Assembly: GCA_004298155.1 (NCBI GenBank)
Contig: SCRD01000001.1
Location: forward strand, 62,001-126,000
DNA length: 64,000 bases
Reading direction: 5' to 3'
DNA from: Acidobacteriota bacterium
GTDB taxonomy: Bacteria > Acidobacteriota > Terriglobia > UBA7540
This document shows positions 33,620 to 47,596 of the stretch, in pieces (position 1 is the first letter of the stretch; each line of letters starts with the position of its first letter). The notes under the pieces are model-generated. The model saw only the letters and a list, made by a program, of their open reading frames with translations. It searched no databases and was not told the origin of the DNA. The translations under genes and the position numbers were made by a program.

Positions 33620-35326
33620 CTATCGCTTGAAGGGACGCGTGGAGAGGATTTTCCCGCCTTCCTGGATGGCGTATGTGGCGTTGGCTTTCAGGTTTGTGAG
33701 CTTATCCTGGTGGCCGCTGGGCCAGTCGATTTCCACTTCATCCGCCGCGCCTGCCTTCTGCAGCCCGAAGGTCAGCGGAAGTTCGCTTTGCGAGCAGTAG
33801 CTGGAACCCGAATGGACAGTCTGCCAACCCGTATTGCGGCCGGAGCGCACCCGAACCCGCGCTCCGATGCCGTTGCGGTTTGAGCGGGTACCGACGGCCT
33901 TGATGCGGATGGCGTTGGCAGAATTTTCGCCTTCGTTCCTGAAGAGGTAAGCCGGGCCGCCGTTGGTGGTGACGAGAACGTCCGGGTATCCGTCATTATC
34001 GATATCGGCATACGCCGCACCACGCGCCACGATCTGCCTCGAAAAGCCCGCTTCTTTTCCGACTTCATCGAACTTTCCGCTCCCGTCATTTTGAAACAAC
34101 AGCGGGCGCTCCGCGTAAGTCACCTGGGCTTGAATGCGGGCGATATCGGGTTCGATGTGGCCGTTGGCAGCGAAAAGGTCCTGACGCCCGTCGAGGTTGT
34201 AGTCATAGAAGAACAGGCCAAAGGTCAGCGACAGGCGGCTTTCCTGCCCGATGGAAGATTGCGGGGCGACGTCAATAAAAAAATCGTGCTTTTCGTTGTG
34301 GTAGAGGCCCAGCATCTGGTTGGCAAAGTTCCCGATGGCGAGGCTGGGATAACCGGAGCGGTCGAAATCGGCGGCGTCGATGCCCATGGCGCCGCGCGCC
34401 GTGCCGTTGGCGTCATAAGCGATCCCGGCCTGGACGGAATCCTGCGTAAAGGTGCCGTCGTGGTTGTTGTGATAGAGCTTGTTGGGCTCGGTGTCATTTG
34501 ACACGGCAATGTCCGGCCAGCCGTCCATGTCGTAATCAACGATGGCCACGCCCAGGTTTTTGCCCGTGGGGTCGTAGATGCTGGCTTTCCGGGTTACGTC
34601 CTCAAACCGGCCGCCGCCCAGGTTGTGAAACAGGCGGCAGCTTTGGCCCTTGTAGGCCGCGGGAGTGCAATAAGATTTGTGCGTGCCGTCGAGCGAGCAA
34701 GTGATGTCCGTCTTCTGGGTCCACTCGACGTAATTACAGACAAAAAGGTCCAGCCTTCCATCTTTGTCGTAATCAAACCAGGCTGCGCTGGCGCCATACC
34801 CCGTGTTGTTTACGCCGGCCACCCTGGTGACATCGCGGAACGTGCCGTTGCGCTCATTGTGGAAAAGACGCGCTTCGCCGAGAGCGGTAACGTAAATATC
34901 GTCCCAGCCATCATTGTCATAATCGCCGATCGCCACGCCCATTCCATACATGGGGACGTTCAAGCCGGCGCGCGCTGTGACGTCCGTAAAAGTCCCGTTA
35001 CCGTTGTTGTGGTAGAGCTTCATCGTCGTCTGGCGACGGACGTGGCCGGTGAAATCGGTCCCATTGATCAGCAGGATGTCCTGATTGCCGTCATTATCAT
35101 AATCGATAAAGGCGCAGCCGGAGCCCATGGTCTCCGGCAAATACTTTTTGCCGAACGCGCCCGTATTGTGGATGAAATGGATTCCCGCCTGCGGCGCGAT
35201 GTTTACGTACCTTCTTGCCGAAGTTTGAGCCGCAGCGGCGAGCTGCCGCGGATCGATGACCTGCGCTCCGCCGGCCATCAGCGCCAGGTTTTTGAGAAAA
35301 TCGCGGCGCGAAGATGGGCTCATCAT
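33620..35326 (-). CDS. Tat-exported CRTAC1-like FG-GAP/ASPIC-UnbV protein (copy A)
   Basis: The 568-residue protein has a Tat signal (SSRRDFLKNLALMAGG), then FG-GAP/VCBS repeats that would form a beta-propeller (for example DYDNDGNQDILLING, DYDNDGWDDIYVTALGE and DYDKDGRLDLFVCNYVEW, each with calcium-binding Asp/Asn patterns). A C-terminal ASPIC/UnbV domain covers about 485-560 (GVRVRVRSGRNT region, then SSYCSQSELPLTFGL and VEIDWPSGHQD). Proteins of this family are exported and often act in binding or adhesion; no enzyme activity is established. It lies 102 bp after the multihaem cytochrome gene on the same strand. Its paralogue is copy B at 38904. Confidence 0.92.
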   Translation of the reverse strand: MMSPSSRRDFLKNLALMAGGAQVIDPRQLAAAAQTSARRYVNIAPQAGIHFIHNTGAFGKKYLPETMGSGCAFIDYDNDGNQDILLINGTDFTGHVRRQTTMKLYHNNGNGTFTDVTARAGLNVPMYGMGVAIGDYDNDGWDDIYVTALGEARLFHNERNGTFRDVTRVAGVNNTGYGASAAWFDYDKDGRLDLFVCNYVEWTQKTDITCSLDGTHKSYCTPAAYKGQSCRLFHNLGGGRFEDVTRKASIYDPTGKNLGVAIVDYDMDGWPDIAVSNDTEPNKLYHNNHDGTFTQDSVQAGIAYDANGTARGAMGIDAADFDRSGYPSLAIGNFANQMLGLYHNEKHDFFIDVAPQSSIGQESRLSLTFGLFFYDYNLDGRQDLFAANGHIEPDIARIQAQVTYAERPLLFQNDGSGKFDEVGKEAGFSRQIVARGAAYADIDNDGYPDVLVTTNGGPAYLFRNEGENSANAIRIKAVGTRSNRNGIGARVRVRSGRNTGWQTVHSGSSYCSQSELPLTFGLQKAGAADEVEIDWPSGHQDKLTNLKANATYAIQEGGKILSTRPFKR

Positions 35327-35428
35327 TGTCAGTCAGCAACCTTCCGTTTCGGGGATTTCAGCCTCGTGAAGAGTGGAATCACGGATGGCTTTGATGGCTG
35401 CGCCGCCTTCCGATAGCGGTCGAGCTCA

Positions 35429-38400
35429 TTAAAAAGGCCCGGTTTCTGCCACAATCTTATGCGCGGGACGGGCGCGCAGCCTGTCGCCGCCAGCCACTTT
35501 GTGGCGATGCCGCGCCGGCGGCAGGTGCTGTGCCGTCACCCGATGGTTCGCGCGCATTTTGAGCTTGTCTTTCCGCATTGCGGCAAGATAGCCGTAGCTG
35601 CCATCCTTTTTGTAGCGCGAAAGGGCGGCCCGCTGTTCGGTTTCGAGCCTGCCCGGCAGCCAGTCCCACTGCTGGCCGTAGTTCCAATAGAACTGCAAGC
35701 CTGGGAGGCTTTCGTCGGTGATCGAAACGTGCTCATGGATGGGCTGCGCCTCAGTGTTATCGTCCGGATGGCCCAGATCGTAGGGGCCGATGAGGGAGTT
35801 GGCGCTTTCATCCGCCTTGAAGCGCATGTACAGCTTCTCTTCGTGGTCCGATCTGGCGTTGTCCTGCAAGCCGCGGTAGCAGAGCATCAGGTTATAGTGC
35901 GCAATCAGGTCCTCAGGATCGATGCTCAGCGTATATTGGAACTGCTTTACAGCCTGCTCATACTTGCGCTGGAGGAAAAGGATGTGGCCTATTTCATCGC
36001 TGACAACGCGGTCGCCGGGATGGAGATCATGGGCCTTCTCATATTCCGAGTAGGCTTGTTCGTAGTCGCCCCGTGTCTGGTAAACCTGCCCCATAAAGTA
36101 GTGCGCGCTTGCAAGGTCAGAATTCAGCGACATCGCCGTCTTCAGGTAAGGAACGGCCCGGTCCACGTTGCCTTCCTGGACCAGCGCGCGGGCGACGTTG
36201 ACCCATCCATCGGCATATTTCGGGTCGATTCTTGTAACGATCTCGAACGCGCGGGCCGCGCCCTTCAGATCTCCCTGGAGGAGGAGGCCGATGCCGTAAT
36301 CATTCCAGCGGTAAACGTCGTCCGGGAGCAAGCTGGTATTCTGCTCGAACGGCTTCGAGGAAGCTGGCAGCACGGGCACTGTCACGGAGTCTTCAGACAT
36401 CACGACGATGGGAACATCAGGGACCTTCTTCTCCCTGGCGGAAACGTCCGCGAGGTTGCCATCGAAGAGCCAATGCGTGTTGTCATAATAGGGAGTTGTC
36501 TGGCGGTCTTTCTGATGCGGATCGGGCCGGCCGGCAAAAGCCCATTGAGTGTTCCACCAGTCGAACTTGCGATAGTTCAGTTTGGCGGTGAAAGTGATTT
36601 TGCCGCCGCAATCATTCGGGACCTTCACGCGGAAATGGACGGCGTCCGCTGCGCCGGGAGGAATCAGATGGGCGTAAACGGTGGCGTGCGCCGACCACGC
36701 GTTGCGCTTGTTGATCCAGTTCCCGTGTTCATCAACCGATAGCGAGCGGTAATAATGCGCTGCGGGATCGACAGGGCCTTTCCCGTTGCCGGCCGCTTCG
36801 CCGCTCCAGAAGATCGTGTGGCCCTTATCGTCCACTCCCTTGAGTTCCACCCAGCAATCGAATGCATCGACGGTGCCGCCGGGGAAGAAGTGTCCGAGGG
36901 ATTTGGTGCGCACGACCACCTCGACGCGCGCGGTCTCGCCCCGGCGCAGATAGGCGACGCCGCGATTGACCGGCGCCATCAGCTTTGCCGGGGGTGCCGC
37001 GGTAACCATGGCTGCTTGCTGGCCGTGGGCCGATTCTTCGCCTACCGCGAACATGGTGGAAGCCTGCGGGGCGCCGGCTGCCGGGCGGGATAGCTGCTCA
37101 GACTGGCCTTTGGGCTCATCGGTAATTGCAAAGATATCTACGGTCACTGCCCCCTTCAGAAACTTTTCAACGTCTGCTACCTGCGACGTATCATCGTGGG
37201 AGGTTGGCACGGCCGTATTGGCGGCTATAAAGCGGTGCGAATGGACATAGCCGTCAATGTTTCCAAAGTCGCCGGATTTGACCATCGGCATGTGGCAGTC
37301 GATGCAGACCATCGGCTTGGGCGGATAATAGAAGGACCTCGCACTGTTGCCAGAAACTCCGCTCCCCTGCCAGTTGTCGTAGTCGTTGAATCCACGGAGC
37401 CAGCGATAGTGATCTACAGGGACATCCAGGTGGACCTTGTGGCATGACGAGCAGAACTCTGCCACGTCTTTACGTTCCCGGTGAAAGGGCTTCAGGAATA
37501 CTTCCCGGTGCGGCTTGGGGTTGAGGAGGATTGAAAAATTGGCGATGTAACGCATCAGCGGGTTCTTGCTGGCCACCAGGCGGTCGAGCTGTGGATACTT
37601 CATGACGTAGCTGCCGTTTCCCATGGTGCTCGTGACGTGGGCGATGGCATGGCACGACATGCAACCCAGGCCGGCCTGGCCTTCGGGCGTGAACTCGATC
37701 TGCCGGATCGGGCGTTTCTGCATCACGTCGGTAAAGGCAATGGCATGGTCATGGCAGCCGGCGCACCACATGGACGGCTTGATCCCGACGGTATCCTGCA
37801 TGTACTCGATCGACTTGCGGTACCACTGGTTGTTGAAGGACGAGAAGTGGTGCATCGAGTGCTGCCACTGGAGATAGATGTCCTTATGGCACGGCTCGCA
37901 GGTTTCTGAATTCATGAAGAACTGGCCCGGAATCGTCTTGCCGTCGGCGGTCTGCGCGGAGTTGGGCCACATCAGGCTGTTCCTGCCTCCGCCTTCTTCG
38001 TACATGCTGACGGGTGCGGTCGGCGGGTTCTTGATCGTATATTCCGGGTTGGGGAAGTATTGATGGTAAAGGGAAACTGCGCCATAGAAGATCAGCGCCG
38101 TGATAAACCCGGCTGCGGCAATCTGCCAGGGATTGCGGGCAAACGGGATTCCTCCTCGGTCGCGCATAAAGGAGCGCAGACGGACCAGCAGGAAGAAAAG
38201 CCCGCCAAGAGCAAAGCCAACGTGGAGGTAAAGGGCAAGGCTGTGAGGGACCGTCATTCCAACGAAGAAGAGGTAAATCCCGAAACCTGCGGAGACGGCA
38301 AAAAAGAGGACGGAAATCGGGCCTGAATGGCCGGCGAGATATTCCCGGCGCCGATTGAGATAAATAAGAAAGAGAATCGCGGCAACAACGCCGAGGAAAG

Positions 38401-38578
38401 GATGCAGGATCGCATTGGCGACATAGAAGAGATCCGGCGTGGCATACGCGGCCAGATAGGCTGCGTTGAAAACCAGCACGAGCCCGAGAACGAACAGGAC
38501 CCTGTTCAGATCGCCCCGGCGACCGCCACCCTTGGGATCAACACCCTTGTGCAATTTGAAATGCCCCTCTTGCCCCAA
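35429..38578 (-). CDS. Membrane-bound five-haem cytochrome c with TPR domain
   Basis: The 1049-residue protein has five N-terminal membrane helices (about 25-46, 49-74, 85-108, 111-134, 150-174), several with His (H60, H112, H119) that could bind haem b. The periplasmic part has five CXXCH motifs at about 227, 272, 306, 376 and 425 (CEPCH, CAGCH, CMSCH, CSSCH, CIDCH), a beta-rich domain (about 460-740), and TPR repeats (about 755-930). The start is a TTG at 38578; GTG or TTG codons shortly after it are possible. It shares the strand with CRTAC1-like copy A, and its promoter region faces the divergent copy B operon. A role in electron transfer between quinol and an exported partner is inferred. 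Confidence 0.88.
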   Translation of the reverse strand: MGQEGHFKLHKGVDPKGGGRRGDLNRVLFVLGLVLVFNAAYLAAYATPDLFYVANAILHPFLGVVAAILFLIYLNRRREYLAGHSGPISVLFFAVSAGFGIYLFFVGMTVPHSLALYLHVGFALGGLFFLLVRLRSFMRDRGGIPFARNPWQIAAAGFITALIFYGAVSLYHQYFPNPEYTIKNPPTAPVSMYEEGGGRNSLMWPNSAQTADGKTIPGQFFMNSETCEPCHKDIYLQWQHSMHHFSSFNNQWYRKSIEYMQDTVGIKPSMWCAGCHDHAIAFTDVMQKRPIRQIEFTPEGQAGLGCMSCHAIAHVTSTMGNGSYVMKYPQLDRLVASKNPLMRYIANFSILLNPKPHREVFLKPFHRERKDVAEFCSSCHKVHLDVPVDHYRWLRGFNDYDNWQGSGVSGNSARSFYYPPKPMVCIDCHMPMVKSGDFGNIDGYVHSHRFIAANTAVPTSHDDTSQVADVEKFLKGAVTVDIFAITDEPKGQSEQLSRPAAGAPQASTMFAVGEESAHGQQAAMVTAAPPAKLMAPVNRGVAYLRRGETARVEVVVRTKSLGHFFPGGTVDAFDCWVELKGVDDKGHTIFWSGEAAGNGKGPVDPAAHYYRSLSVDEHGNWINKRNAWSAHATVYAHLIPPGAADAVHFRVKVPNDCGGKITFTAKLNYRKFDWWNTQWAFAGRPDPHQKDRQTTPYYDNTHWLFDGNLADVSAREKKVPDVPIVVMSEDSVTVPVLPASSKPFEQNTSLLPDDVYRWNDYGIGLLLQGDLKGAARAFEIVTRIDPKYADGWVNVARALVQEGNVDRAVPYLKTAMSLNSDLASAHYFMGQVYQTRGDYEQAYSEYEKAHDLHPGDRVVSDEIGHILFLQRKYEQAVKQFQYTLSIDPEDLIAHYNLMLCYRGLQDNARSDHEEKLYMRFKADESANSLIGPYDLGHPDDNTEAQPIHEHVSITDESLPGLQFYWNYGQQWDWLPGRLETEQRAALSRYKKDGSYGYLAAMRKDKLKMRANHRVTAQHLPPARHRHKVAGGDRLRARPAHKIVAETGPF

Positions 38579-38903: not shown

Positions 38904-40652
38904 ATGAATCGTCGGAATTTGCTTAAGCTGCTTGCCGGGATAGGGGCTGTGGGTGGGGCAGGCGGCCTGGTTTACGAATCAGCACGCATCAGGGAAGAAC
39001 TGGTGCGCCTGACGAACAGAACGGTCCCAAGACACGCTTTTCCCAACCAGCTGGTTGATGTTACCGCGCAAGCCGGCATCATCTTCAATCACAATAGCGG
39101 CGCCTTCGGAGAGAAATATCTTCCGGAAACTCTGGGTTCCGGTTGCGCCTTTCTCGACTACGACAATGACGGCTGGCTGGACATCCTGCTGATCAACGGA
39201 AAAGACTGGCCGGGGCATGGCAGCCGCCGCACAACGATGAAGCTCTACCGAAACAATCGAAACGGCACCTTCACCGACGTCACCCGCCAGGCCGGCCTCG
39301 ATGTTGAAATGTACGGCATCGGCGTGGCGGTGGGGGACTACGACAACGACGGATTTGAGGATTTTTACGTTACGACTTATGGCCAGAGCCGTCTTTTCCA
39401 CAATAACGGTAACGGCACCTTTACGGACGTAACGCGCGCCGCGCATCTGAGTGGCTACTCGAGCCTGAGCACCTCGGCCTTATGGTTTGACTATGATCGC
39501 GACGGCCATCTGGACCTTCTGGTAGCCAATTACGTCAGATGGTCTCCGGAAACCGACATCTTCTGCAGCCTGGATGGAACAACCAAATCCTATTGCACGC
39601 CGGAAGCGTATCCGGGAACAACGTGCTGGTTTTTCCATAACCGCGGCGATGGAACGTTTGAGGACGTGACCGGCAAGTCCGGCCTGCATGATTCCACCTC
39701 CAAATCGCTCGGCGTCACGATGATTGATTACGATCTCGACGGCTGGCCCGATGTCTTTATCGCCAACGACACGCAACCCAACAAGCTTTATCACAATAAT
39801 CACGATGGAACTTTTAAGGAGGTTGCAGTATCGGCGGGAGTCGCATTCAGCGAAGACGGCGTGGCCAGGGCCGGAATGGGCGCTGACGCTGCCGACTATG
39901 ACAATTCCGGAATGCCCAGCCTGGTGGTCACCAACTTTTCGCAGCAGATGGTGGGACTCTACCGGAACGAGGGCCACGGCTTCTTCATTGACGAGGCGCC
40001 GTCAAACGCCGTGGGACAATCCACGCGGATGACGCTTGGCTTCGGCTGTTTCTTTTTTGATGTTGATCTCGACAGCATGCTTGACCTGCTGGTGGCCAAC
40101 GGCCACATCGACGCCACCATCAACCGGGTTGACGCCAGTATTACCTATGCAGAGCCGCCGCGCTTGTTCCATAATGAGGGGCATGGCAAGTTCCGTGATA
40201 TCAGCACGCTGGTAGGAAAATCGTTTGATCAGCCAAAAGTAGCCCGGGGCGCGGCTTACGGAGATTTTGACAACGACGGCGACCTGGACGTGCTCATGAC
40301 GACGAATAACGGGCCGGCTTATCTATATCGCAACGATGGAGGGGAGAACCACAGCATCCGTTTTTTCATCCGGGGCGTCCGCTCAAACCGCGATGGAATT
40401 GGAACTAACGTTCGCATCTGGGCGCCCCAGGGAAAACGCTGGCTGACCGTAAAGAGCGGGTCCAGCTATCTCTCCTGCTCAGACCCAAGAGTCACTTTCG
40501 GGCTCGGTCGTTACCGGTATATCGAAAAAGCATTGCTCGAATGGCCCAGCGGGGAAAAGCAGGAACTTGGAAGGCTGGAAGCCGGCCGCACGTATGTGGT
40601 CCAGGAAGGTAAAGGCGTTATCGACGATATTCCTTTCCAGGGCCGTTCTTAA
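38904..40652 (+). CDS. Tat-exported CRTAC1-like FG-GAP/ASPIC-UnbV protein (copy B)
   Basis: The 582-residue paralogue of copy A begins with NRRNLLKLLAGIGAVGG, a Tat-like or membrane-anchor signal. Its first propeller blade is nearly the same as in copy A: HNSGAFGEKYLPETLGSGCA against HNTGAFGKKYLPETMGSGCA, followed by LDYDNDGWLDILLING. The FG-GAP blades continue to about 490, then a C-terminal ASPIC/UnbV domain (about 490-570) with NRDGIGTNVRIW and SSYLSCSDPRVTFGL. It is followed after only 5 bp by a histidine kinase gene, so the two are co-transcribed. It may be the periplasmic ligand-binding partner of that kinase; this is inference. Confidence 0.92.
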   Translation: MNRRNLLKLLAGIGAVGGAGGLVYESARIREELVRLTNRTVPRHAFPNQLVDVTAQAGIIFNHNSGAFGEKYLPETLGSGCAFLDYDNDGWLDILLINGKDWPGHGSRRTTMKLYRNNRNGTFTDVTRQAGLDVEMYGIGVAVGDYDNDGFEDFYVTTYGQSRLFHNNGNGTFTDVTRAAHLSGYSSLSTSALWFDYDRDGHLDLLVANYVRWSPETDIFCSLDGTTKSYCTPEAYPGTTCWFFHNRGDGTFEDVTGKSGLHDSTSKSLGVTMIDYDLDGWPDVFIANDTQPNKLYHNNHDGTFKEVAVSAGVAFSEDGVARAGMGADAADYDNSGMPSLVVTNFSQQMVGLYRNEGHGFFIDEAPSNAVGQSTRMTLGFGCFFFDVDLDSMLDLLVANGHIDATINRVDASITYAEPPRLFHNEGHGKFRDISTLVGKSFDQPKVARGAAYGDFDNDGDLDVLMTTNNGPAYLYRNDGGENHSIRFFIRGVRSNRDGIGTNVRIWAPQGKRWLTVKSGSSYLSCSDPRVTFGLGRYRYIEKALLEWPSGEKQELGRLEAGRTYVVQEGKGVIDDIPFQGRS

Positions 40653-40657
40653 GCCCG

Positions 40658-42076
40658 ATGAGCGAGTCTGCCTCTCAGTACGAACAGTTGCGGAAAATCC
40701 CATCCCCTTCCACGCGCCTGTGGATTGGCCTATGCATCATTCTTTCCATCTTCCTGGTCTTTGTGGTGTACAGCAGCCGGCAGATTCGCTGGCTTGAGGA
40801 TTTCCAGGTCAACGTGGTACAGAATAACCGCAAGGCTTCATTGCAGCTATCGCGGCTGCAGAATGATGCCTATCTGCTGGCCCTGTCACTGCAAGGCGTG
40901 ATGCTTTCCAAAAGCGGTTATCCGGTCCGCGACTGGCAACCGGAATTCACGCGCCTGCGGAACGACATGGAAAATGCTGCGGTGCTTGAAGGCCGATATG
41001 CGGTTGACACGCCCGCCAGCCACGATAAACGGATCCAGTTGCGCCAGGCCCTGGCAGACTTCGGCACGACCGCGGACGGCATTTTTGCCCTGGCGCGGCA
41101 AGGTAAAACCGAGGAAGCACGGAAGTTAATCGAGACGGAGCTTGGGAACAAGCGGGCTGTCATTTCCGAGATCATTTTCAGACTTCTGGTCCTGAACGAC
41201 CAGGCGCAGTCCAATGCCGCTGACCGAATCAATGCAACGTATGAAAACGTCAAGACCGACATCCTGCTGATAACGGCCCTCCTGTTTCTGCTGGCGCTTG
41301 GGACCGGCCTCTATACGTTTGAAGCCAATAAAAAGACTTTCGCAAAGCTGCAGCATTTGGCCGAACAACTCCAGGTGCAGTCCGGACAGTTGCGGAAGCT
41401 TTCCTGGAAACTGATCGAGGTCCAGGAGGAGACGCTTCGGCGTGTAGCCCGGGACTTGCACGACGAGTTCGGGCAGATCCTGACGGCCATCGGCGTCATG
41501 CTCAACCGGGCAGGGCGCAAGGCGCATGGTCCCGATCCCGCCCTGATTGCGGAACTTGAGTACGTGAAGAGTATTGTTGAGGAGACGCTGGCGAAAGTCC
41601 GTGACCAGTCGCAGATGTTCCGTCCGGGCGTCCTGGATGATTTCGGGCTCGACCAGACGCTCGAGTGGTTTACGCGTCAGTTCACGCGCCAGGCAGGAAT
41701 CGATGTCCATTTCAGCGGCGCGCTGGCAAGCGGCCGGTTGCCGCCGGAAGAATCCATCCATGTCTATCGCATTGTTCAGGAGGCGCTGAACAACGTGGCG
41801 CGCCACTCCCGGGCCACGGAAGCATGGGTGGAGATGGAAGAGCGCGAACGCGAACTCCGCTTGGAAATCCGCGATAATGGTGTAGGATTTGAGGTAGGCA
41901 ACCCGGCGGAACGCTCGCCGAATGACGGTATTGGTTTGATGGGGATGCGCGAGCGCGCCGAGCACCTGAACGGTACCATCGAGATGCAATCAGCCCCGGG
42001 GAAGGGCACAACCATCAACGTCCGAATACCTCTGAAAAAAGCGCCAGAAACGCGAGTTGCAGAAAAGGTAGGATAA
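40658..42076 (+). CDS. Membrane histidine kinase of the NarL/DegS type
   Basis: The 472-residue protein has two membrane helices (about 20-40 and 201-221) enclosing a periplasmic domain of about 160 residues that is all-helical by composition, as in four-helix sensors. Then comes a HisKA_3 dimerisation helix with the phospho-His in RRVARDLHDEFGQ (about H268), and a HATPase_c domain (N box near EALNNVARHSRAT; G boxes DNGVGFEV and GIGLMGMRERAEHL). It lies 5 bp after CRTAC1-like copy B and 6 bp before the response regulator. The signal is unknown; the exported neighbours suggest an envelope or redox cue. Confidence 0.93.
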   Translation: MSESASQYEQLRKIPSPSTRLWIGLCIILSIFLVFVVYSSRQIRWLEDFQVNVVQNNRKASLQLSRLQNDAYLLALSLQGVMLSKSGYPVRDWQPEFTRLRNDMENAAVLEGRYAVDTPASHDKRIQLRQALADFGTTADGIFALARQGKTEEARKLIETELGNKRAVISEIIFRLLVLNDQAQSNAADRINATYENVKTDILLITALLFLLALGTGLYTFEANKKTFAKLQHLAEQLQVQSGQLRKLSWKLIEVQEETLRRVARDLHDEFGQILTAIGVMLNRAGRKAHGPDPALIAELEYVKSIVEETLAKVRDQSQMFRPGVLDDFGLDQTLEWFTRQFTRQAGIDVHFSGALASGRLPPEESIHVYRIVQEALNNVARHSRATEAWVEMEERERELRLEIRDNGVGFEVGNPAERSPNDGIGLMGMRERAEHLNGTIEMQSAPGKGTTINVRIPLKKAPETRVAEKVG

Positions 42077-42082
42077 ACAACC

Positions 42083-42757
42083 ATGCCGTCCTCTTCCACT
42101 GACAAAAAAATCAGGGTTTTCCTGGCTGATGACCACGCGCTGGTCCGTCAGGGCTTCCGCCGTTTGCTGGAAGACGATCCCCGTATTATGGTGGTGGGTG
42201 AAGCCAATACAGGGCTTTCCGCTATTGACCAATGCGGAAAGATCAAGCCTGACGTTGTGGTCATGGACCTATTGATGCCGGAAATCGGAGGGCTTGAGGC
42301 CACGGCGGAAATCCTGAAAGCCAACCCCGAAACCAAAATACTGATCCTCAGCATGTATTCCAATCCGGCTTATGTTCGCAAGGCCATCGAAGCGGGCGCC
42401 AAGGGCTATATTCTGAAGGACGCGATTGAGGTGGACCTGGCCCAGGCCGTGGTGGTGCTTTCTCAGGGCGGCGCCTACATGAGCCCGGCGATTTCAAACC
42501 TGGTGCTCGAGGGACTGAAGACAGGAACAATGCAGGAAGAGAGGGCGGACCCTTATGACCGCCTGACGCTGAGAGAGAAAGAAGTCCTGCAGCTCATCGC
42601 CCAGGGAAAATCCAATAAGGAAATCGCCACGCTTCTGGACATCAGCATCAATACGGTGGCCGTCCACCGTGCCCGGTTAATGGAAACGTTGGGTCTGCAT
42701 CGCACGGCGGAACTGGTGCTTTACGCTGTGAAAAAGGGGATTGTCCAGCCGCAGTAG
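42083..42757 (+). CDS. LuxR/NarL-family response regulator
   Basis: The 224-residue protein has a receiver domain (acidic pair D16-D17, phosphoacceptor D62 in VVMDLLMPEIGG, K112 in GYILKD) and a LuxR-type helix-turn-helix at about 155-215 (LTLREKEVLQLIAQGKSNKE, then IATLLDISINTVAVHRARL). It is the cognate partner of the kinase gene 6 bp upstream, whose end (AGGATAA) supplies the ribosome binding site. Its likely targets include the divergent promoter region at 38579-38903; that is inference. Confidence 0.95.
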   Translation: MPSSSTDKKIRVFLADDHALVRQGFRRLLEDDPRIMVVGEANTGLSAIDQCGKIKPDVVVMDLLMPEIGGLEATAEILKANPETKILILSMYSNPAYVRKAIEAGAKGYILKDAIEVDLAQAVVVLSQGGAYMSPAISNLVLEGLKTGTMQEERADPYDRLTLREKEVLQLIAQGKSNKEIATLLDISINTVAVHRARLMETLGLHRTAELVLYAVKKGIVQPQ

Positions 42758-42780: not shown

Positions 42781-43941
42781 TTACCTTGTCTTCCTGACGG
42801 CAGCTTTGCACGCGGCCATCAGGCTTGAATAGATTGCTCCGCAGGTTTGCGCCTGGACTCCCAGTTCGCTGATGCGGATCGGCGGGCAGTTGGGCTGGAT
42901 CCTCTTTGCCACGCGCGCGACTGTTTGGAGCATGAACTCGGGAGCGCCCCGGCTGATGCCGCCGCCCAGCACGATCAGGTCCGGGTCAAGCACGCCCACA
43001 ATATTCGCGACGCCAACGCCCAGAATGGTAAAGATGGTTTCCAGCGTCTTCCGAGCCTGTCGATTGCCCCGGCGAAAAGCGTCAAAAACAAAGTAGGCGT
43101 CGCGCGTTTCAGCGAGCCCCGCTGACCGTCCACCTGGCCGCGGTTTCATGAGCTTACGGCCGAGGGTTGCGATCCCTTGCCCCGAAGCATAGCTCTCAAA
43201 ATACCCGGTGACCCCGAAATCTTCATTCCAGCGTGGCCACTCGACTTGCAGAAACTGCAACTCGCCAGCCGCGCCCGTCCGCCCGGCATAGAGATGCCCG
43301 TTTACAAATATCCCGGACCCGATGCCGGTCCCGAGAGCAATGAATACAAAGTTGTCAAGGCCGCGGGCGACGCCGCGCCAGTGTTCGCCGATGGCGGCCA
43401 TGTTGGCGTCATTATCAATGCAGACGGGCAGGCGGAATTCCTTCTCCAATTCGCGCTTCAGATTGATGTTCTTCCAGCCCTGAAGATTGTTGGCCATCAG
43501 CACCAGGCCCGTGCGTGGATCGACAGCGCTGGGCACTGCCATCGCGACGGCGCGAAGAGTGTTGCGCTTTCCCGCAGGAATAAGCCGGTGAATGCCTTTC
43601 TTAATCTGGCTGATAGTTCTTCGGGGCCCATCTTCCGGCCTGACCTTTTCCTTGGTATCGGCCACGATCTCGCCCGTAAAGTCAGCCAGCGCAAAATGGA
43701 GGTGGCTGGCCCCCATGTCGATACCCACCAGGCAGCCGTAATCAGGATTCAGGCTGGTGCCGCGGCGGTCGCCGGAAGGGATGACAAGCCCGGCCCTGCT
43801 CAGCCTCCTCGTTTGACTCCTGACGGCGGCCCGGCCCAGATTCAACTTTGCGGCAAGCGCTTGTGGCTGGATGGACGGATGGCGCGAAACTTCTTCAAGA
43901 AGTTGAAACAGACTGGCTTCCAAATGAAAGTCGCTCTTCAT
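42781..43941 (-). CDS. ROK-family protein with N-terminal helix-turn-helix
   Basis: The 386-residue protein has a winged helix-turn-helix (about 10-60, QALAAKLNLGRAAVRSQTRR) and a ROK sugar-kinase fold with the phosphate loops GCLVGIDMGASHLHFALADF and CIDNDANMAAIGEHWRG, then ALGTGIGSGIFVNGHLYAG. This layout is that of NagC/XylR-type repressors and sugar kinases. The usual zinc site CxCGxxGC in the middle is missing: the region after GRTGAAGELQFLQVEWPRW has only FGVTGYFES. It may therefore be a regulator that no longer binds zinc or sugar in the usual way. It is divergent from the endonuclease V gene. Confidence 0.88.
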   Translation of the reverse strand: MKSDFHLEASLFQLLEEVSRHPSIQPQALAAKLNLGRAAVRSQTRRLSRAGLVIPSGDRRGTSLNPDYGCLVGIDMGASHLHFALADFTGEIVADTKEKVRPEDGPRRTISQIKKGIHRLIPAGKRNTLRAVAMAVPSAVDPRTGLVLMANNLQGWKNINLKRELEKEFRLPVCIDNDANMAAIGEHWRGVARGLDNFVFIALGTGIGSGIFVNGHLYAGRTGAAGELQFLQVEWPRWNEDFGVTGYFESYASGQGIATLGRKLMKPRPGGRSAGLAETRDAYFVFDAFRRGNRQARKTLETIFTILGVGVANIVGVLDPDLIVLGGGISRGAPEFMLQTVARVAKRIQPNCPPIRISELGVQAQTCGAIYSSLMAACKAAVRKTR

Positions 43942-44948: not shown

Positions 44949-45620
44949 TCAGGCAGAAGTTTTGTCGCTTGCCAGGCTCAGCGCCACGCCTTTCGTCTGG
45001 AGGTTCTTCTCGATTTGCGCCAGAACGTTGGAAGGGCAGCCCTCCCAGGAGGCAACCATCTGGTTACCTTGATAGGGCAGATCTTTCACGCCTTCCTTGC
45101 TTGAAAAGAATCCGCCTACAACAAGGTCCCGCAGGTGGTTGAAAAACGCCACGTAATTCAGGTCTTCAGCCGAGGCCTTATCGGGATATGCGATGCGGTC
45201 CAGGATCTTCTTCTGCTGGGCAGAGGTGGAGTCAATGAAATCATGGCTAAACACCCGATTGCATTCCAGGTCGAGCCAGGTAAGGCCGCCCAGAATTTCC
45301 GCCTTGAGCCTTCCGCCTCTGAAATCGAGCCAGTCGTCGATAAACTCCGGAACCCCCGCCTGGGTGGCGCTGCTGCTTCGCTCGTCGGCAGGAATGATCA
45401 GATCGCTCAGCGCATTAATGGTTTCCCACTCGTGATCGTTGAAGGCCTTCCGCTTGTAGCCGGATGCCGCCCCCGCGGATGCGCTGCCGCGGGTCTTCTG
45501 AGGCGCCGCTACGGCAGCGCCCAGCGGGACCAATGCAGCAGCTGGAACAGCCGAGAAGACTTTCAGCATGTCGCGCCGTTTGATGGCGCCTTTGCGTTTT
45601 TCGTTTTCCTTTTCAGCCAT
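44949..45620 (-). CDS. Gluconate 2-dehydrogenase subunit 3-like, Tat-exported
   Basis: The 223-residue protein starts with a Tat signal (KRRDMLKVFSAVPAAALVPLG) and continues with the subunit 3 pattern FNDHEWETINALSDLIIPAD, then DWLDFRGG, and KKILDRIAYPDKASAEDL further on. In the known enzymes the small subunit escorts the flavoprotein through the Tat pathway, because the GMC subunit lacks its own signal. It lies 39 bp after the GMC gene on the same strand, as expected for such a pair. No cytochrome c subunit is adjacent. Confidence 0.9.
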   Translation of the reverse strand: MAEKENEKRKGAIKRRDMLKVFSAVPAAALVPLGAAVAAPQKTRGSASAGAASGYKRKAFNDHEWETINALSDLIIPADERSSSATQAGVPEFIDDWLDFRGGRLKAEILGGLTWLDLECNRVFSHDFIDSTSAQQKKILDRIAYPDKASAEDLNYVAFFNHLRDLVVGGFFSSKEGVKDLPYQGNQMVASWEGCPSNVLAQIEKNLQTKGVALSLASDKTSA

Positions 45621-45659
45621 GATGCGTATAGCCCCCTGTTACAGCCGCGATGATTGCTT

Positions 45660-47366
45660 TTAAATGTTGCGTTTCTTAACCTCATCCACAATGTGCTCTG
45701 AAGTCCGCCAGGCCAGCGCCAGAATAGTGAGCGTGGGGTTCTTGTCGGCGTTGCTCACGAACGGTGCTGCGTCTGTAATAAACAAGTTCTTGCAATCCCA
45801 GGCCTGGCAATAGGCGTTCAGTGCCGATGTGCTGCGTTCTGATCCCATCCGCGCCGTGCCCACTTCGTGGATAATCTCGCCGCCGCGCGAGATGCCCCAG
45901 TTTTCGTCGGCCCCGGCGGTCTGCACAACTTCTCCGCCGGCGGTTTCAATGATTTCGCGGAAAGTTTCCCGCGCGTGCCGGGCCTGCAGAATTTCATCCT
46001 GGGTCCATTTGAAGTGGAATTTGAGCACCGGAATGCCCCATTCATCGACAACGTCCTTGTCGATTTCGCACCAGCTGTCGTCGTTGGGAATCATTTCACC
46101 GCGGCTTGAAAAACCGACGAAAGCTCCGAACAATTTCCGGCACCCTTTTTTCAGCTCCGCGCCGTAACCTCCGCCGAGGTAGCGATGCGAGCCGCCGAAC
46201 GTGCCCTCGCCGGGCATATGGCGCCCGCCGCCGAACTCGATGTGATAACCACGGGAGAAAGGCATCTGGTTCTTGAACTGCTTGTCGTAATTCCACCAGG
46301 GCATATAGAGGTGCATCCCGCCGGTGCCGTCATCGTTGTGCGGGGGCAGGTCCATCAGCACGGGGAAGAAGCCTACCGTGCCGTCTGCTCCGACGGTATC
46401 CATCAGGTATCGGCCCACGACCCCGGTGGAATTCGCCAGGCCGTCCGGATGCCGCGTGCTGCGCGAATTCAGCAGCAGACGACAGGTCTCGCAATTGCTG
46501 GCCGCCAGCACCACAACCTTGCCGCGCGCCTGCACTTCCTTGCGAGTCGTCCTGTCGACGTAGGATACGCCCGTTGCAAGGCCGTCGGGTCCTGTCAGGA
46601 CCTCACGCACCATGGCATTACAGATGATGTCGAGGTTTCCTGTTTCCATGGCCGGCGGGATCAGCACCGTTGGCGAGGAAAAGTTCGATGAAGTTGCGCA
46701 GCTTCGCCCGCATTGTGAGCAGTAATGGCACGCGGGCCTCCCGTTGAGCGGTCGCGTCAGGATCGAGTGACGTGAAGGTATGCAGGTTATGTGGAGCTTT
46801 TCACAAGCCTTCTGCACCAGCAACTCGTAGCAGCGGGGCGCAGGCGCCGGCTGGAATTTGCCATCCGGTGCGTTTTCCACGTTTTCAATAGAGCCGTAAA
46901 CGCCGATCAGTTCCTCTGTCTTGTCGTAATACGGCGCCAGGTCTTCATAAGTAATTGGCCAGTCAAACCCCTTGCCATCGCGCGAGTAAGGTTTAAAGTC
47001 GTATGGCCCGAAGCGCAGCGAGATGCGGCCCCAGTGATTGGTGCGGCCTCCCAGCATTCGTGAGCGGAACCATGTCCAATCAGTGCCAGGAGCGTTGGTA
47101 TAGGGCTCTCCCGGAATCTGCCATCCGCCCACAGCAGCGTCAAAATAACCAAAAGTGGTGTTGGGCTTCACTGCACCACGGTGCGGGGCCTGATAGTCCC
47201 ACTCAAACATCTTGGATTGCTTGGCTGTGTCATACCAGCCGCCTGCCTCGAGCATCAGGACCTTGGCGCCGGCCCTGGTCAGAACATAAGCGGCCATGCC
47301 GCCGCCCGCTCCTGAACCCACAATAATTGCGTCATAAACTCGTGAAGGTTTTTTGATTTGTGCCAT
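45660..47366 (-). CDS. GMC-family oxidoreductase
   Basis: The 568-residue flavoprotein has the FAD-binding GSGAGGGMAAYVLTRAG (17-33) and the GMC middle region with a conserved Cys-rich loop CHYCSQCGRSCATSSNFSSP. The C-terminal catalytic part reads HEVGTARMG, then NLFITDAAPFVSNADKNPTL. With the neighbouring subunit 3 gene it forms a gluconate- or sugar-oxidising pair. I chose the ATG at 47366; earlier starts up to 47426 are open but have poor ribosome binding sites. Substrate cannot be told from sequence; 2-keto-gluconate production or choline/alcohol oxidation are possible. Confidence 0.92.
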   Translation of the reverse strand: MAQIKKPSRVYDAIIVGSGAGGGMAAYVLTRAGAKVLMLEAGGWYDTAKQSKMFEWDYQAPHRGAVKPNTTFGYFDAAVGGWQIPGEPYTNAPGTDWTWFRSRMLGGRTNHWGRISLRFGPYDFKPYSRDGKGFDWPITYEDLAPYYDKTEELIGVYGSIENVENAPDGKFQPAPAPRCYELLVQKACEKLHITCIPSRHSILTRPLNGRPACHYCSQCGRSCATSSNFSSPTVLIPPAMETGNLDIICNAMVREVLTGPDGLATGVSYVDRTTRKEVQARGKVVVLAASNCETCRLLLNSRSTRHPDGLANSTGVVGRYLMDTVGADGTVGFFPVLMDLPPHNDDGTGGMHLYMPWWNYDKQFKNQMPFSRGYHIEFGGGRHMPGEGTFGGSHRYLGGGYGAELKKGCRKLFGAFVGFSSRGEMIPNDDSWCEIDKDVVDEWGIPVLKFHFKWTQDEILQARHARETFREIIETAGGEVVQTAGADENWGISRGGEIIHEVGTARMGSERSTSALNAYCQAWDCKNLFITDAAPFVSNADKNPTLTILALAWRTSEHIVDEVKKRNI

Positions 47367-47596
47367 GGCCCCTTGCCCCATTAATTTTAAGTTCGGGGGG
47401 GAGTGTATCACAAAAATCCCCATCAAGGCTTTTCAGTTGTGATGCAGATTACGAGATTCCGGTTGGGTCAGTCGACGGAGAGAGAAACTGGCCGAAGTTG
47501 AACCCCACCCCGCAGCGCTCCAAACCAGGTTGGAACAGGGACCGGTGGAGAGGGCTTCTGAGTTTCGACTGCCAGGGCGTGCTAACATTTAAGAAT

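What the first reader, a model, noticed from the sequence alone, without database searches (positions are those of the whole stretch)
38904..42757. CRTAC1-like protein encoded in one operon with a two-component system
The gaps are 5 and 6 bp, so the propeller protein and the kinase are made together. A propeller or ASPIC/UnbV protein as the extracytoplasmic partner of a NarL-type kinase with an approximately 160-residue helical periplasmic domain would be a new kind of signal input.
Basis: partly seen in the sequence, partly recalled or inferred. Interest (0 to 1): 0.55.

Follow-up and report, generated by a model that had tools for sequence, protein, structure and literature searches.

The report
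Propeller protein tied to sensor kinase
In many Acidobacteria a probably secreted propeller-shaped protein, related to an animal cartilage protein, is encoded almost always with the same sensor kinase and its regulator and has evolved in step with the kinase's outer sensing part, so it is probably a partner in a signalling system for which I found no description.

Summary
In detail: CRTAC1-like protein (CRT_B), histidine kinase (HK) and NarL-type regulator (RR), gaps 5 and 6 bp. In 399 genomes of the class, 150 have the HK's sensor half and 112 a CRT_B-type gene; 111 of the 112 have this HK, 103 of them on one strand within 4.5 kb. Outside the window's family the usual order is HK-RR-CRT_B, with RR and CRT_B overlapping by 4 bp in 58 of 67 loci. 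TCS-linked CRTs form one clade, separate from CRTs encoded behind a five-heme membrane cytochrome; in the window the two operons are divergent neighbours. CRT_B branch rates follow the HK's periplasmic four-helix domain (partial r 0.56) more than its kinase domain (0.24) or the RR (0.12); the paralogue CRT_A shows no such tie to the sensor (weaker on one alternative tree). Against an obligate partnership: 17 of 109 HK loci lack CRT_B. No binding was tested and no shared operator was found. Best reading: a three-component system with an exported CRTAC1-type propeller as signalling partner, working like TorT-TorS-TorR or AioX-AioS-AioR without belonging to them.

The parts
38904..40652 (+). CRT_B: CRTAC1-like protein (FG-GAP propeller + UnbV_ASPIC domain), 582 aa
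   Evidence: seven D-x-D-x-D-G-like motifs, from which seven blades are inferred
38904..38966 (+). probable twin-arginine (Tat) signal, MNRRNLLKLLAGIGAVGGAGG
   Evidence: TIGR01409 15.1 bits, below its 16.7 cut-off; twin-Arg motif near the start of 62 of 67 non-f1 CRT_B proteins
40395..40595 (+). UnbV_ASPIC domain of CRT_B, residues 498-564
40658..42076 (+). HK: sensor histidine kinase, HisKA_3/HATPase_c, 472 aa; predicted phospho-acceptor His268
   Evidence: the role of His268 is by family knowledge
40781..41254 (+). periplasmic four-helix-bundle sensor domain of HK, about residues 42-199
   Evidence: hydropathy, AF2 model; 4HB_MCP_1 below cut-off
42083..42757 (+). RR: NarL/LuxR-type response regulator, 224 aa
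38579..38903 (.). divergent intergenic region between the CYT and CRT_B operons; partly conserved in the congener G001
   Evidence: no shared inverted repeat found
35429..38578 (-). CYT: protein with five TM-like segments, five CXXCH motifs (cytochrome c554-like) and TPRs, 1049 aa
33620..35326 (-). CRT_A: CRTAC1-like paralogue (58% identical to CRT_B), downstream of CYT

Best explanation
CRT_B, HK and RR form a three-component signalling system. CRT_B is a CRTAC1-type propeller with probable calcium sites, exported (probably folded, by Tat) to the periplasm, where it binds or modulates the four-helix-bundle sensor domain of the HK; the HK phosphorylates the NarL-type RR. The likely business of the system is the neighbouring electron-transfer module CYT-CRT_A (five-heme, five-TM cytochrome plus a sister CRTAC1 protein): CRT_B may report the state or substrate of that module. 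Shown here by sequence: the operon, the conserved association, overlapping frames, a single clade, rate covariation of sensor domain and CRT_B. Inferred: calcium binding, export route, binding to the sensor, direction of signalling, target genes.
For: Of 112 genomes with CRT_B, 111 have this HK; in 103 same strand and within 4.5 kb. Beside the HK also in 6 of the 10 non-class genomes with an HK hit, by coordinates. RR/CRT_B overlap of 4 bp in 58 of 67 loci. TCS-linked CRTs are one side of a branch, SH-aLRT 99 (44 rows). In G080 and G307, where the HK lies on another contig, RR and CRT_B stay together. Branch-rate partial correlation with CRT_B: sensor 0.58 (95% 0.41-0.71), kinase 0.23, RR 0.24, 76 loci; with CRT_A as control, 58 genomes: sensor-CRT_B 0.56 (0.39-0.70), sensor-CRT_A -0.19 (-0.40 to 0.06); on three topologies with 55 genomes sensor-CRT_B is 0.50-0.65. 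Loci without CRT_B have relatively faster sensor domains: median sensor/kinase tip ratio 1.39 (17) against 0.88 (78), p 0.006. CYT lies in the fetched stretch of 20 of 109 TCS loci, in two orientations and four families.
Against: 17 of 109 HK loci have no CRT_B beside HK-RR. The rate test within f1 alone is not significant (12 against 8 tips, p 0.13; p 0.44 with contig-edge loci) and tips are not independent. Rate covariation can come from shared selection without contact; CRT_A also covaries with CRT_B (0.44); with tips only the kinase reaches 0.41 against 0.52 for the sensor, and on a CRT_A-only topology the sensor exceeds the kinase in only 84% of bootstraps. No shared inverted repeat upstream of CYT and the TCS operon, so the target rests on neighbourhood only, and 89 of 109 loci had no CYT in the stretch fetched. 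No complex was modelled.
Confidence: 0.5

Rival explanations
1. CRT_B is an output, not an input: the TCS senses a small ligand directly in its four-helix bundle and drives its own operon, so that CRT_B, a periplasmic effector or subunit of a CYT-CRT_A complex, is made when needed.
For: The sensor bundle aligns with a ligand-binding chemoreceptor domain (MCP2201, 9kup: Z 16.5, rmsd 2.1, 130 residues), though designed helical bundles score as high; 4HB_MCP_1 matches below cut-off. HK-RR persists without CRT_B in 17 of 109 loci while CRT_B lacks the HK in 1 of 112 genomes. RR and CRT_B stay together where HK has left. Arg66 and Asp70 of the sensor are invariant in a 15-row alignment (columns R54 and D58).
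Against: Rate covariation of CRT_B with the sensor domain more than with kinase or RR; faster sensor evolution where CRT_B is missing.
Confidence: 0.33
2. Both: CRT_B is an induced feedback partner, made with the RR and damping or resetting the kinase like CpxP (recalled precedent), while the primary ligand is bound by the bundle itself.
For: Overlap of RR and CRT_B frames and sensor-CRT_B rate covariation together; explains dispensability.
Against: No data on autoregulation.
Confidence: 0.13
3. Neutral neighbourhood: an operon inherited together without functional link.
For: Vertical inheritance explains part of the conservation within families; related genomes are not independent.
Against: Two gene orders (CRT-HK-RR in f1, HK-RR-CRT elsewhere), 111 of 112 co-occurrence, frequent frame overlap, presence outside the class, rate covariation.
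Confidence: 0.04

Closest known systems
AioX-AioS-AioR / ArxXSR / ArrXSR (PMC5908839: abstract, outline and passages seen)
   Same: Conserved three-gene cluster of exported partner, HK and RR that regulates a respiratory redox enzyme; the abstract says the regulatory proteins evolved together
   Different: X is a periplasmic binding protein; CRT_B is a CRTAC1-type propeller. AioR acts at an RpoN promoter (passage); the RR here is NarL/LuxR type
TorT-TorS-TorR with TorC (PMC8534201: passages seen; TorC as a pentaheme cytochrome is recalled)
   Same: All-helical HK periplasmic domain that takes its signal through an exported partner (TorT) and is inhibited by membrane-anchored apo-TorC; here a helical HK domain, a probably exported CRT_B and a membrane-anchored five-heme cytochrome nearby
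   Different: No sequence relation tested; TorS has two stacked bundles (passage) and is a hybrid kinase (recalled); the HK here has one bundle and no receiver
XylFII-LytS (PDB 5xsj; title only)
   Same: Helical sensor domain of an HK solved in complex with an outside protein partner (Z 14.9, rmsd 2.5, 121 residues)
   Different: Partner is XylFII, taken from recall to be a sugar-binding protein; helical bundles, designed ones included, reach such Z by common arrangement
Bacteroidetes HTCS with Reg_prop propellers (PMC3243724: passages seen)
   Same: Beta-propeller as extracytoplasmic input to a histidine kinase
   Different: Propeller is part of a hybrid kinase and of another family; here it is a separate FG-GAP/UnbV protein
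CRTAC1 family protein beside hydrazine-synthase-like genes (PMC12758564: three passages seen)
   Same: A CRTAC1 gene flanked by genes for such subunits, some of which carry cytochrome c554 domains; compare CYT-CRT_A
   Different: No two-component system mentioned in the passages seen; which organisms carry it I did not check
Animal CRTAC1 (murine, PDB 9etn)
   Same: Homologous fold and domains (Foldseek E 1.7e-29, TM 0.74 by target; profile E 3.4e-29)
   Different: 20% identity in the structural alignment; no histidine kinase in animals (general knowledge)

Membership tests
CRTAC1 / UnbV_ASPIC family | FG-GAP repeats and C-terminal UnbV_ASPIC domain over cut-off | tested here: met
   FG-GAP_3 175 bits (cut-off 26.9), UnbV_ASPIC 53.2 bits (cut-off 23.4)
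CRTAC1 / UnbV_ASPIC family | fold of CRTAC1 | tested here: met
   AF2 mean pLDDT 84.6; best PDB match murine CRTAC1
NarL-type two-component system | HisKA_3 + HATPase_c kinase with receiver + LuxR/GerE regulator | tested here: met
   kinase part matches VraS and DesK structures
4HB_MCP_1 sensor (PF12729) | Pfam score over the cut-off | tested here: not met
   21.1 and 23.4 bits against 27; 11 of 15 relatives match at E<=0.1
four-helix-bundle sensor fold (as a fold, not Pfam membership) | four-helix bundle between two TM segments | tested here: met
   AF2 model and hydropathy
Three-component systems with exported partner (works like AioXSR, TorTSR) | partner, HK and RR genes conserved together | tested here: met
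   HK in 111 of 112 CRT_B genomes, 103 within 4.5 kb; RR between or beside
Three-component systems with exported partner (works like AioXSR, TorTSR) | partner is exported | tested here: inconclusive
   twin-Arg motif near the start in 62 of 67, but Tat model below cut-off for the window protein
Three-component systems with exported partner (works like AioXSR, TorTSR) | partner binds the HK sensor domain | not testable with these tools
   indirect support only: rate covariation
AioX/TorT-type periplasmic binding protein | partner has a periplasmic-binding-protein fold | tested here: not met
   CRT_B is modelled as a beta-propeller of CRTAC1 type
Bacteroidetes HTCS (Reg_prop) | propeller fused to hybrid kinase | tested here: not met
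   separate genes; no Reg_prop or receiver among the Pfam matches of the HK

The most novel reading that the evidence does not exclude
Bacterial CRTAC1 proteins include a dedicated signalling lineage: an exported calcium-site propeller that is a subunit of a histidine-kinase sensor and reports the state of a five-heme cytochrome/CRTAC1 electron-transfer module. To my knowledge it would be the first function for a bacterial CRTAC1 protein, and a new class of kinase input.
Probability: 0.4. Interest if true: 0.8.

Novelty: new variant of a known kind. Interest (0 to 1): 0.6.

Why it matters
CRTAC1/ASPIC-UnbV genes are numerous here (17 in this genome) and have an animal relative, yet I found no function in print for a bacterial one (searches; open-licence papers only). 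An HK-RR-CRT cassette kept in many Acidobacteria gives one of them a testable job, adds a new kind of exported partner to histidine-kinase signalling, and points to a five-heme cytochrome/CRTAC1 module whose physiology is unknown.

Tried and rejected
Neutral operon: disfavoured for the reasons given. CRT_B as indispensable input: rejected as stated, since HK-RR stands alone in 17 of 109 loci. Separate recruitment of a different CRT in each lineage: not supported by the tree (the first tree gave support 88). Compartment effect as cause of the rate covariation: tested with CRT_A, the paralogue with the same domains (its export was not tested), and not seen on the joint trees. CRT_A lies at another locus, so a different history could lower its correlation; on a tree made from CRT_A alone sensor-CRT_A is 0.18 (-0.11 to 0.46) against 0.50 for sensor-CRT_B. 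Shared operator upstream of CYT and the TCS: nothing above shuffled sequence in f1; small excesses elsewhere (up to 6 of 30 non-f1 CYT upstreams) were not followed. NarX, NarQ and TorS did not appear in the 50 rows; that is no evidence against them.

Plasmid search with the HK: 920 records, none covering 80% of it; the five rows shown are matches of the kinase half. Literature: CRTAC1 + Acidobacteria, no paper; ASPIC + FG-GAP + histidine kinase, none; UnbV + two-component, two papers, passages show no link; FG-GAP + two-component system + operon, three papers, one opened for a passage, no link there; 'CRTAC1 family protein', one paper, passages; cartilage acidic protein 1 + bacterial + propeller + structure, two listings, not opened; Acidobacteria + multiheme + tetratricopeptide + cytochrome, one listing, not opened; a five-term search on accessory proteins, none; two searches gave three and four listings, of which one and two were opened for passages. 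The library holds open-licence PMC papers only.

Rows dropped before counts; the 109 loci are L039-L067 (29) plus 80 of the 119 non-f1 hits, chosen by hand to spread over families and genera; L068-L071 (two fragments, two distant hits) left out; the window's own locus not counted; 10 loci undecided (contig edge, or no RR beside HK). 'Beside' means a CRT over 50% identical, same strand, within 900 bp. One of the 82 with CRT_B (G026, L040) shows only fragments of the gene. CRT_B rows are those from 890 bits up, less the second rows of G116 and G342 (they fit the CRT_A profile better) and G078 (it follows CYT); fragments (G009, G029) fall below the threshold, so 112 is a lower bound. One search picks the start codon nearest the RR stop, which favours overlaps; edge loci and tips with very short branches left out. 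CRT_B rows thinned to 11 a family outside f1, three fragments left out; six loci whose best match was CRT_B left out as CRT_A; three doubtful CRT_A rows (G125, G193, G248) were in, and were dropped.
Full report
What is there. At 38904-42757 three + strand genes with gaps of 5 and 6 bp encode a CRTAC1-like protein (CRT_B), a histidine kinase (HK) and a response regulator (RR). CRT_B carries FG-GAP repeats, seven D-x-D-x-D-G-like motifs and UnbV_ASPIC; its AlphaFold2 model (mean pLDDT 84.6) matches murine CRTAC1 best. The HK has two TM-like segments around about 160 residues that are modelled as a four-helix bundle, and a VraS/DesK-like kinase part. Divergently upstream lie CYT (five TM-like segments, five CXXCH, TPRs) and CRT_A, a paralogue of CRT_B with 58% identity. 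CYT homologues over 40% identical have five CXXCH in 37 of 38 cases, four in one.

Conservation. The sensor half of the HK was found in 34 of 61 genomes, the window's own included, and in 150 of 399 genomes of the class, with few exceptions once per genome. I examined 109 HK neighbourhoods (29 from the first search, 80 of 119 non-f1 hits of the second, spread by hand over families). CRT_B stands beside HK-RR in 82: upstream of HK in 14 (13 in f1, one in f6; one of the f1 cases, G026, only as fragments) and downstream of RR in 68 (f5, f6, f10, f13). It is absent in 17 and undecided in 10; none of the 17 genomes has a CRT_B-type match at E<=1e-258. Asking the other way, 112 of 399 genomes have a CRT_B-type gene; 111 have this HK, 103 on the same strand within 4.5 kb (91 downstream, 12 upstream). 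Of the remaining nine, G263, G329, G326 and G344 show an HK fragment, RR and CRT_B at a contig's end; G074, G378 and G278 have CRT_B, or RR and CRT_B, at a contig end (no HK was found in G278); G080 and G307 keep RR-CRT_B together with the HK on another contig, divergent from a run of genes that includes CYT. Outside the class the HK search hit 10 genomes; in six a CRT match lies beside it by coordinates (G734, G638, G411 at 938-1021 bits; G512, G687, G724 at 607-622 bits).

Form of the operon. In 58 of 67 non-f1 loci the CRT start overlaps the RR stop by 4 bp, a common sign of translational coupling; the start choice leans towards overlaps. Under that choice 62 of 67 CRT_B proteins have a twin-arginine motif within the first 20 residues; the window protein has MNRRNLLK, with the Tat model just under its cut-off.

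Two CRT lineages. In a tree of 90 CRT proteins the 44 TCS-linked rows are one side of a branch with SH-aLRT 99, against 42 CYT-linked or other rows and 4 outgroup rows (15 rows with support 88). CYT stands next to the CRT_A-type gene in 32 of the 37 loci L087-L123; the other five are at or near contig ends. In 60 HK-bearing genomes searched with a CRT_A profile all had a match, and in 54 the best match was not the CRT_B gene. CYT lies in the fetched stretch (mostly about 5 kb each side) of 20 of 109 TCS loci: 12 in f6 as HK-RR-CRT_B-CYT, 2 in f15 without CRT_B, and divergent in 5 of f5 and one of f1, besides the window itself. So the window looks like a rearranged form of a recurrent five-gene neighbourhood HK, RR, CRT_B, CYT, CRT_A; the link of the two halves is much looser than that of CRT_B with HK-RR.

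Is CRT_B tied to the sensor? On a fixed tree of 76 loci, branch lengths of CRT_B correlate with those of the HK sensor domain after removing kinase and RR (partial r 0.58, bootstrap 0.41-0.71), more than with kinase (0.23) or RR (0.24). With CRT_A added as control for fold and, presumably, compartment (58 genomes, 107 branches) sensor-CRT_B stays 0.56 (0.39-0.70), sensor-CRT_A is -0.19 (-0.40 to 0.06), kinase-CRT_B 0.24, RR-CRT_B 0.12 and CRT_A-CRT_B 0.44; the sensor exceeds the kinase in 97% of bootstraps. With tips only, kinase-CRT_B rises to 0.41 against 0.52 for the sensor. After dropping three doubtful CRT_A rows (55 genomes) sensor-CRT_B is 0.65, 0.61 and 0.50 on topologies from all parts, from kinase and RR, and from CRT_A; sensor-CRT_A is -0.14, -0.16 and 0.18; the sensor exceeds the kinase in 96%, 98% and 84% of bootstraps. 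Loci without CRT_B have higher sensor/kinase tip ratios (median 1.39, n 17, against 0.88, n 78; p 0.006), but tips are not independent and within f1 alone the difference is not significant (p 0.13; 0.44 with edge loci). These are indirect signs of functional coupling between the outer domain of the kinase and the propeller.

Mechanism. Most likely CRT_B is an exported signalling partner of the kinase, in the manner of TorT for TorS or AioX for AioS (PMC5908839, PMC8534201, passages), and the system serves the CYT-CRT_A module. TorS is of interest because its periplasmic part is also bound by membrane-anchored apo-TorC (PMC8534201 passage). The sensor bundle aligns with a ligand-binding domain (MCP2201, Z 16.5, rmsd 2.1, 130 residues) as well as with a domain solved in complex with a protein partner (XylFII-LytS, Z 14.9, rmsd 2.5, 121 residues), but designed helical bundles score as high or higher (6egc, Z 18.5), so the fold does not decide between direct and indirect sensing. 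The main rival is that CRT_B is an output of the TCS. CRT_B almost never occurs without HK, while HK occurs without CRT_B, which fits both a dispensable partner and a target.

Novelty. My literature searches found no report of a CRTAC1-type protein in a two-component system; they covered open-licence papers only. Exported partners of kinases are known; a CRTAC1 propeller in that place is, as far as I could see, not. I file it as a new variant of a known kind, with the caveat that binding is untested.

Noticed in passing
window 33620-38578; L087-L123: CYT-CRT_A, a five-heme, five-TM, TPR cytochrome gene followed by a CRTAC1 gene, stands together in 32 of 37 loci, also in genomes without an HK match such as G041, G049 and G056; function unknown.
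   Followed up: partly
L088:7929-11417, L090:7812-11366, L095:2551-6057, L097:2560-6480, L119:7711-11151: Very long ORFs (about 1,150-1,300 aa) with a CRT-like part lie next to the CRT_A-type gene in several families, possibly a further member of the module.
   Followed up: no
G000 (whole genome); L073, L076, L078-L080, L082, L083, L085, L086: 17 UnbV_ASPIC genes in one 5.2-Mb genome; several of the others stand near ORFs with weak similarity to the TPR/cytochrome protein.
   Followed up: partly
L053:2702-4645, L056:9570-11567: HKs of genus g4 (G005, G021) carry an extra stretch of about 160 residues just before the kinase part.
   Followed up: no
L185 (G149, family f6): CRT-HK-RR order and 52% HK identity like family f1, in a family whose other 19 loci with CRT_B have HK-RR-CRT: possible lateral transfer or misplaced genome.
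   Followed up: no
L040:8039-8526 (G026): Only fragments of CRT_B in different frames were found directly upstream of an intact HK-RR: a decaying gene or an assembly error.
   Followed up: no
window 42781-43941 and 44949-47426; L092, L096, L099, L107, L113: A ROK-family gene and two ORFs that look like a GMC-type oxidoreductase and its small subunit (names recalled, no family search run on them); relatives of the ROK gene and of the larger ORF also lie near CYT-CRT_A in other f1 genomes.
   Followed up: no
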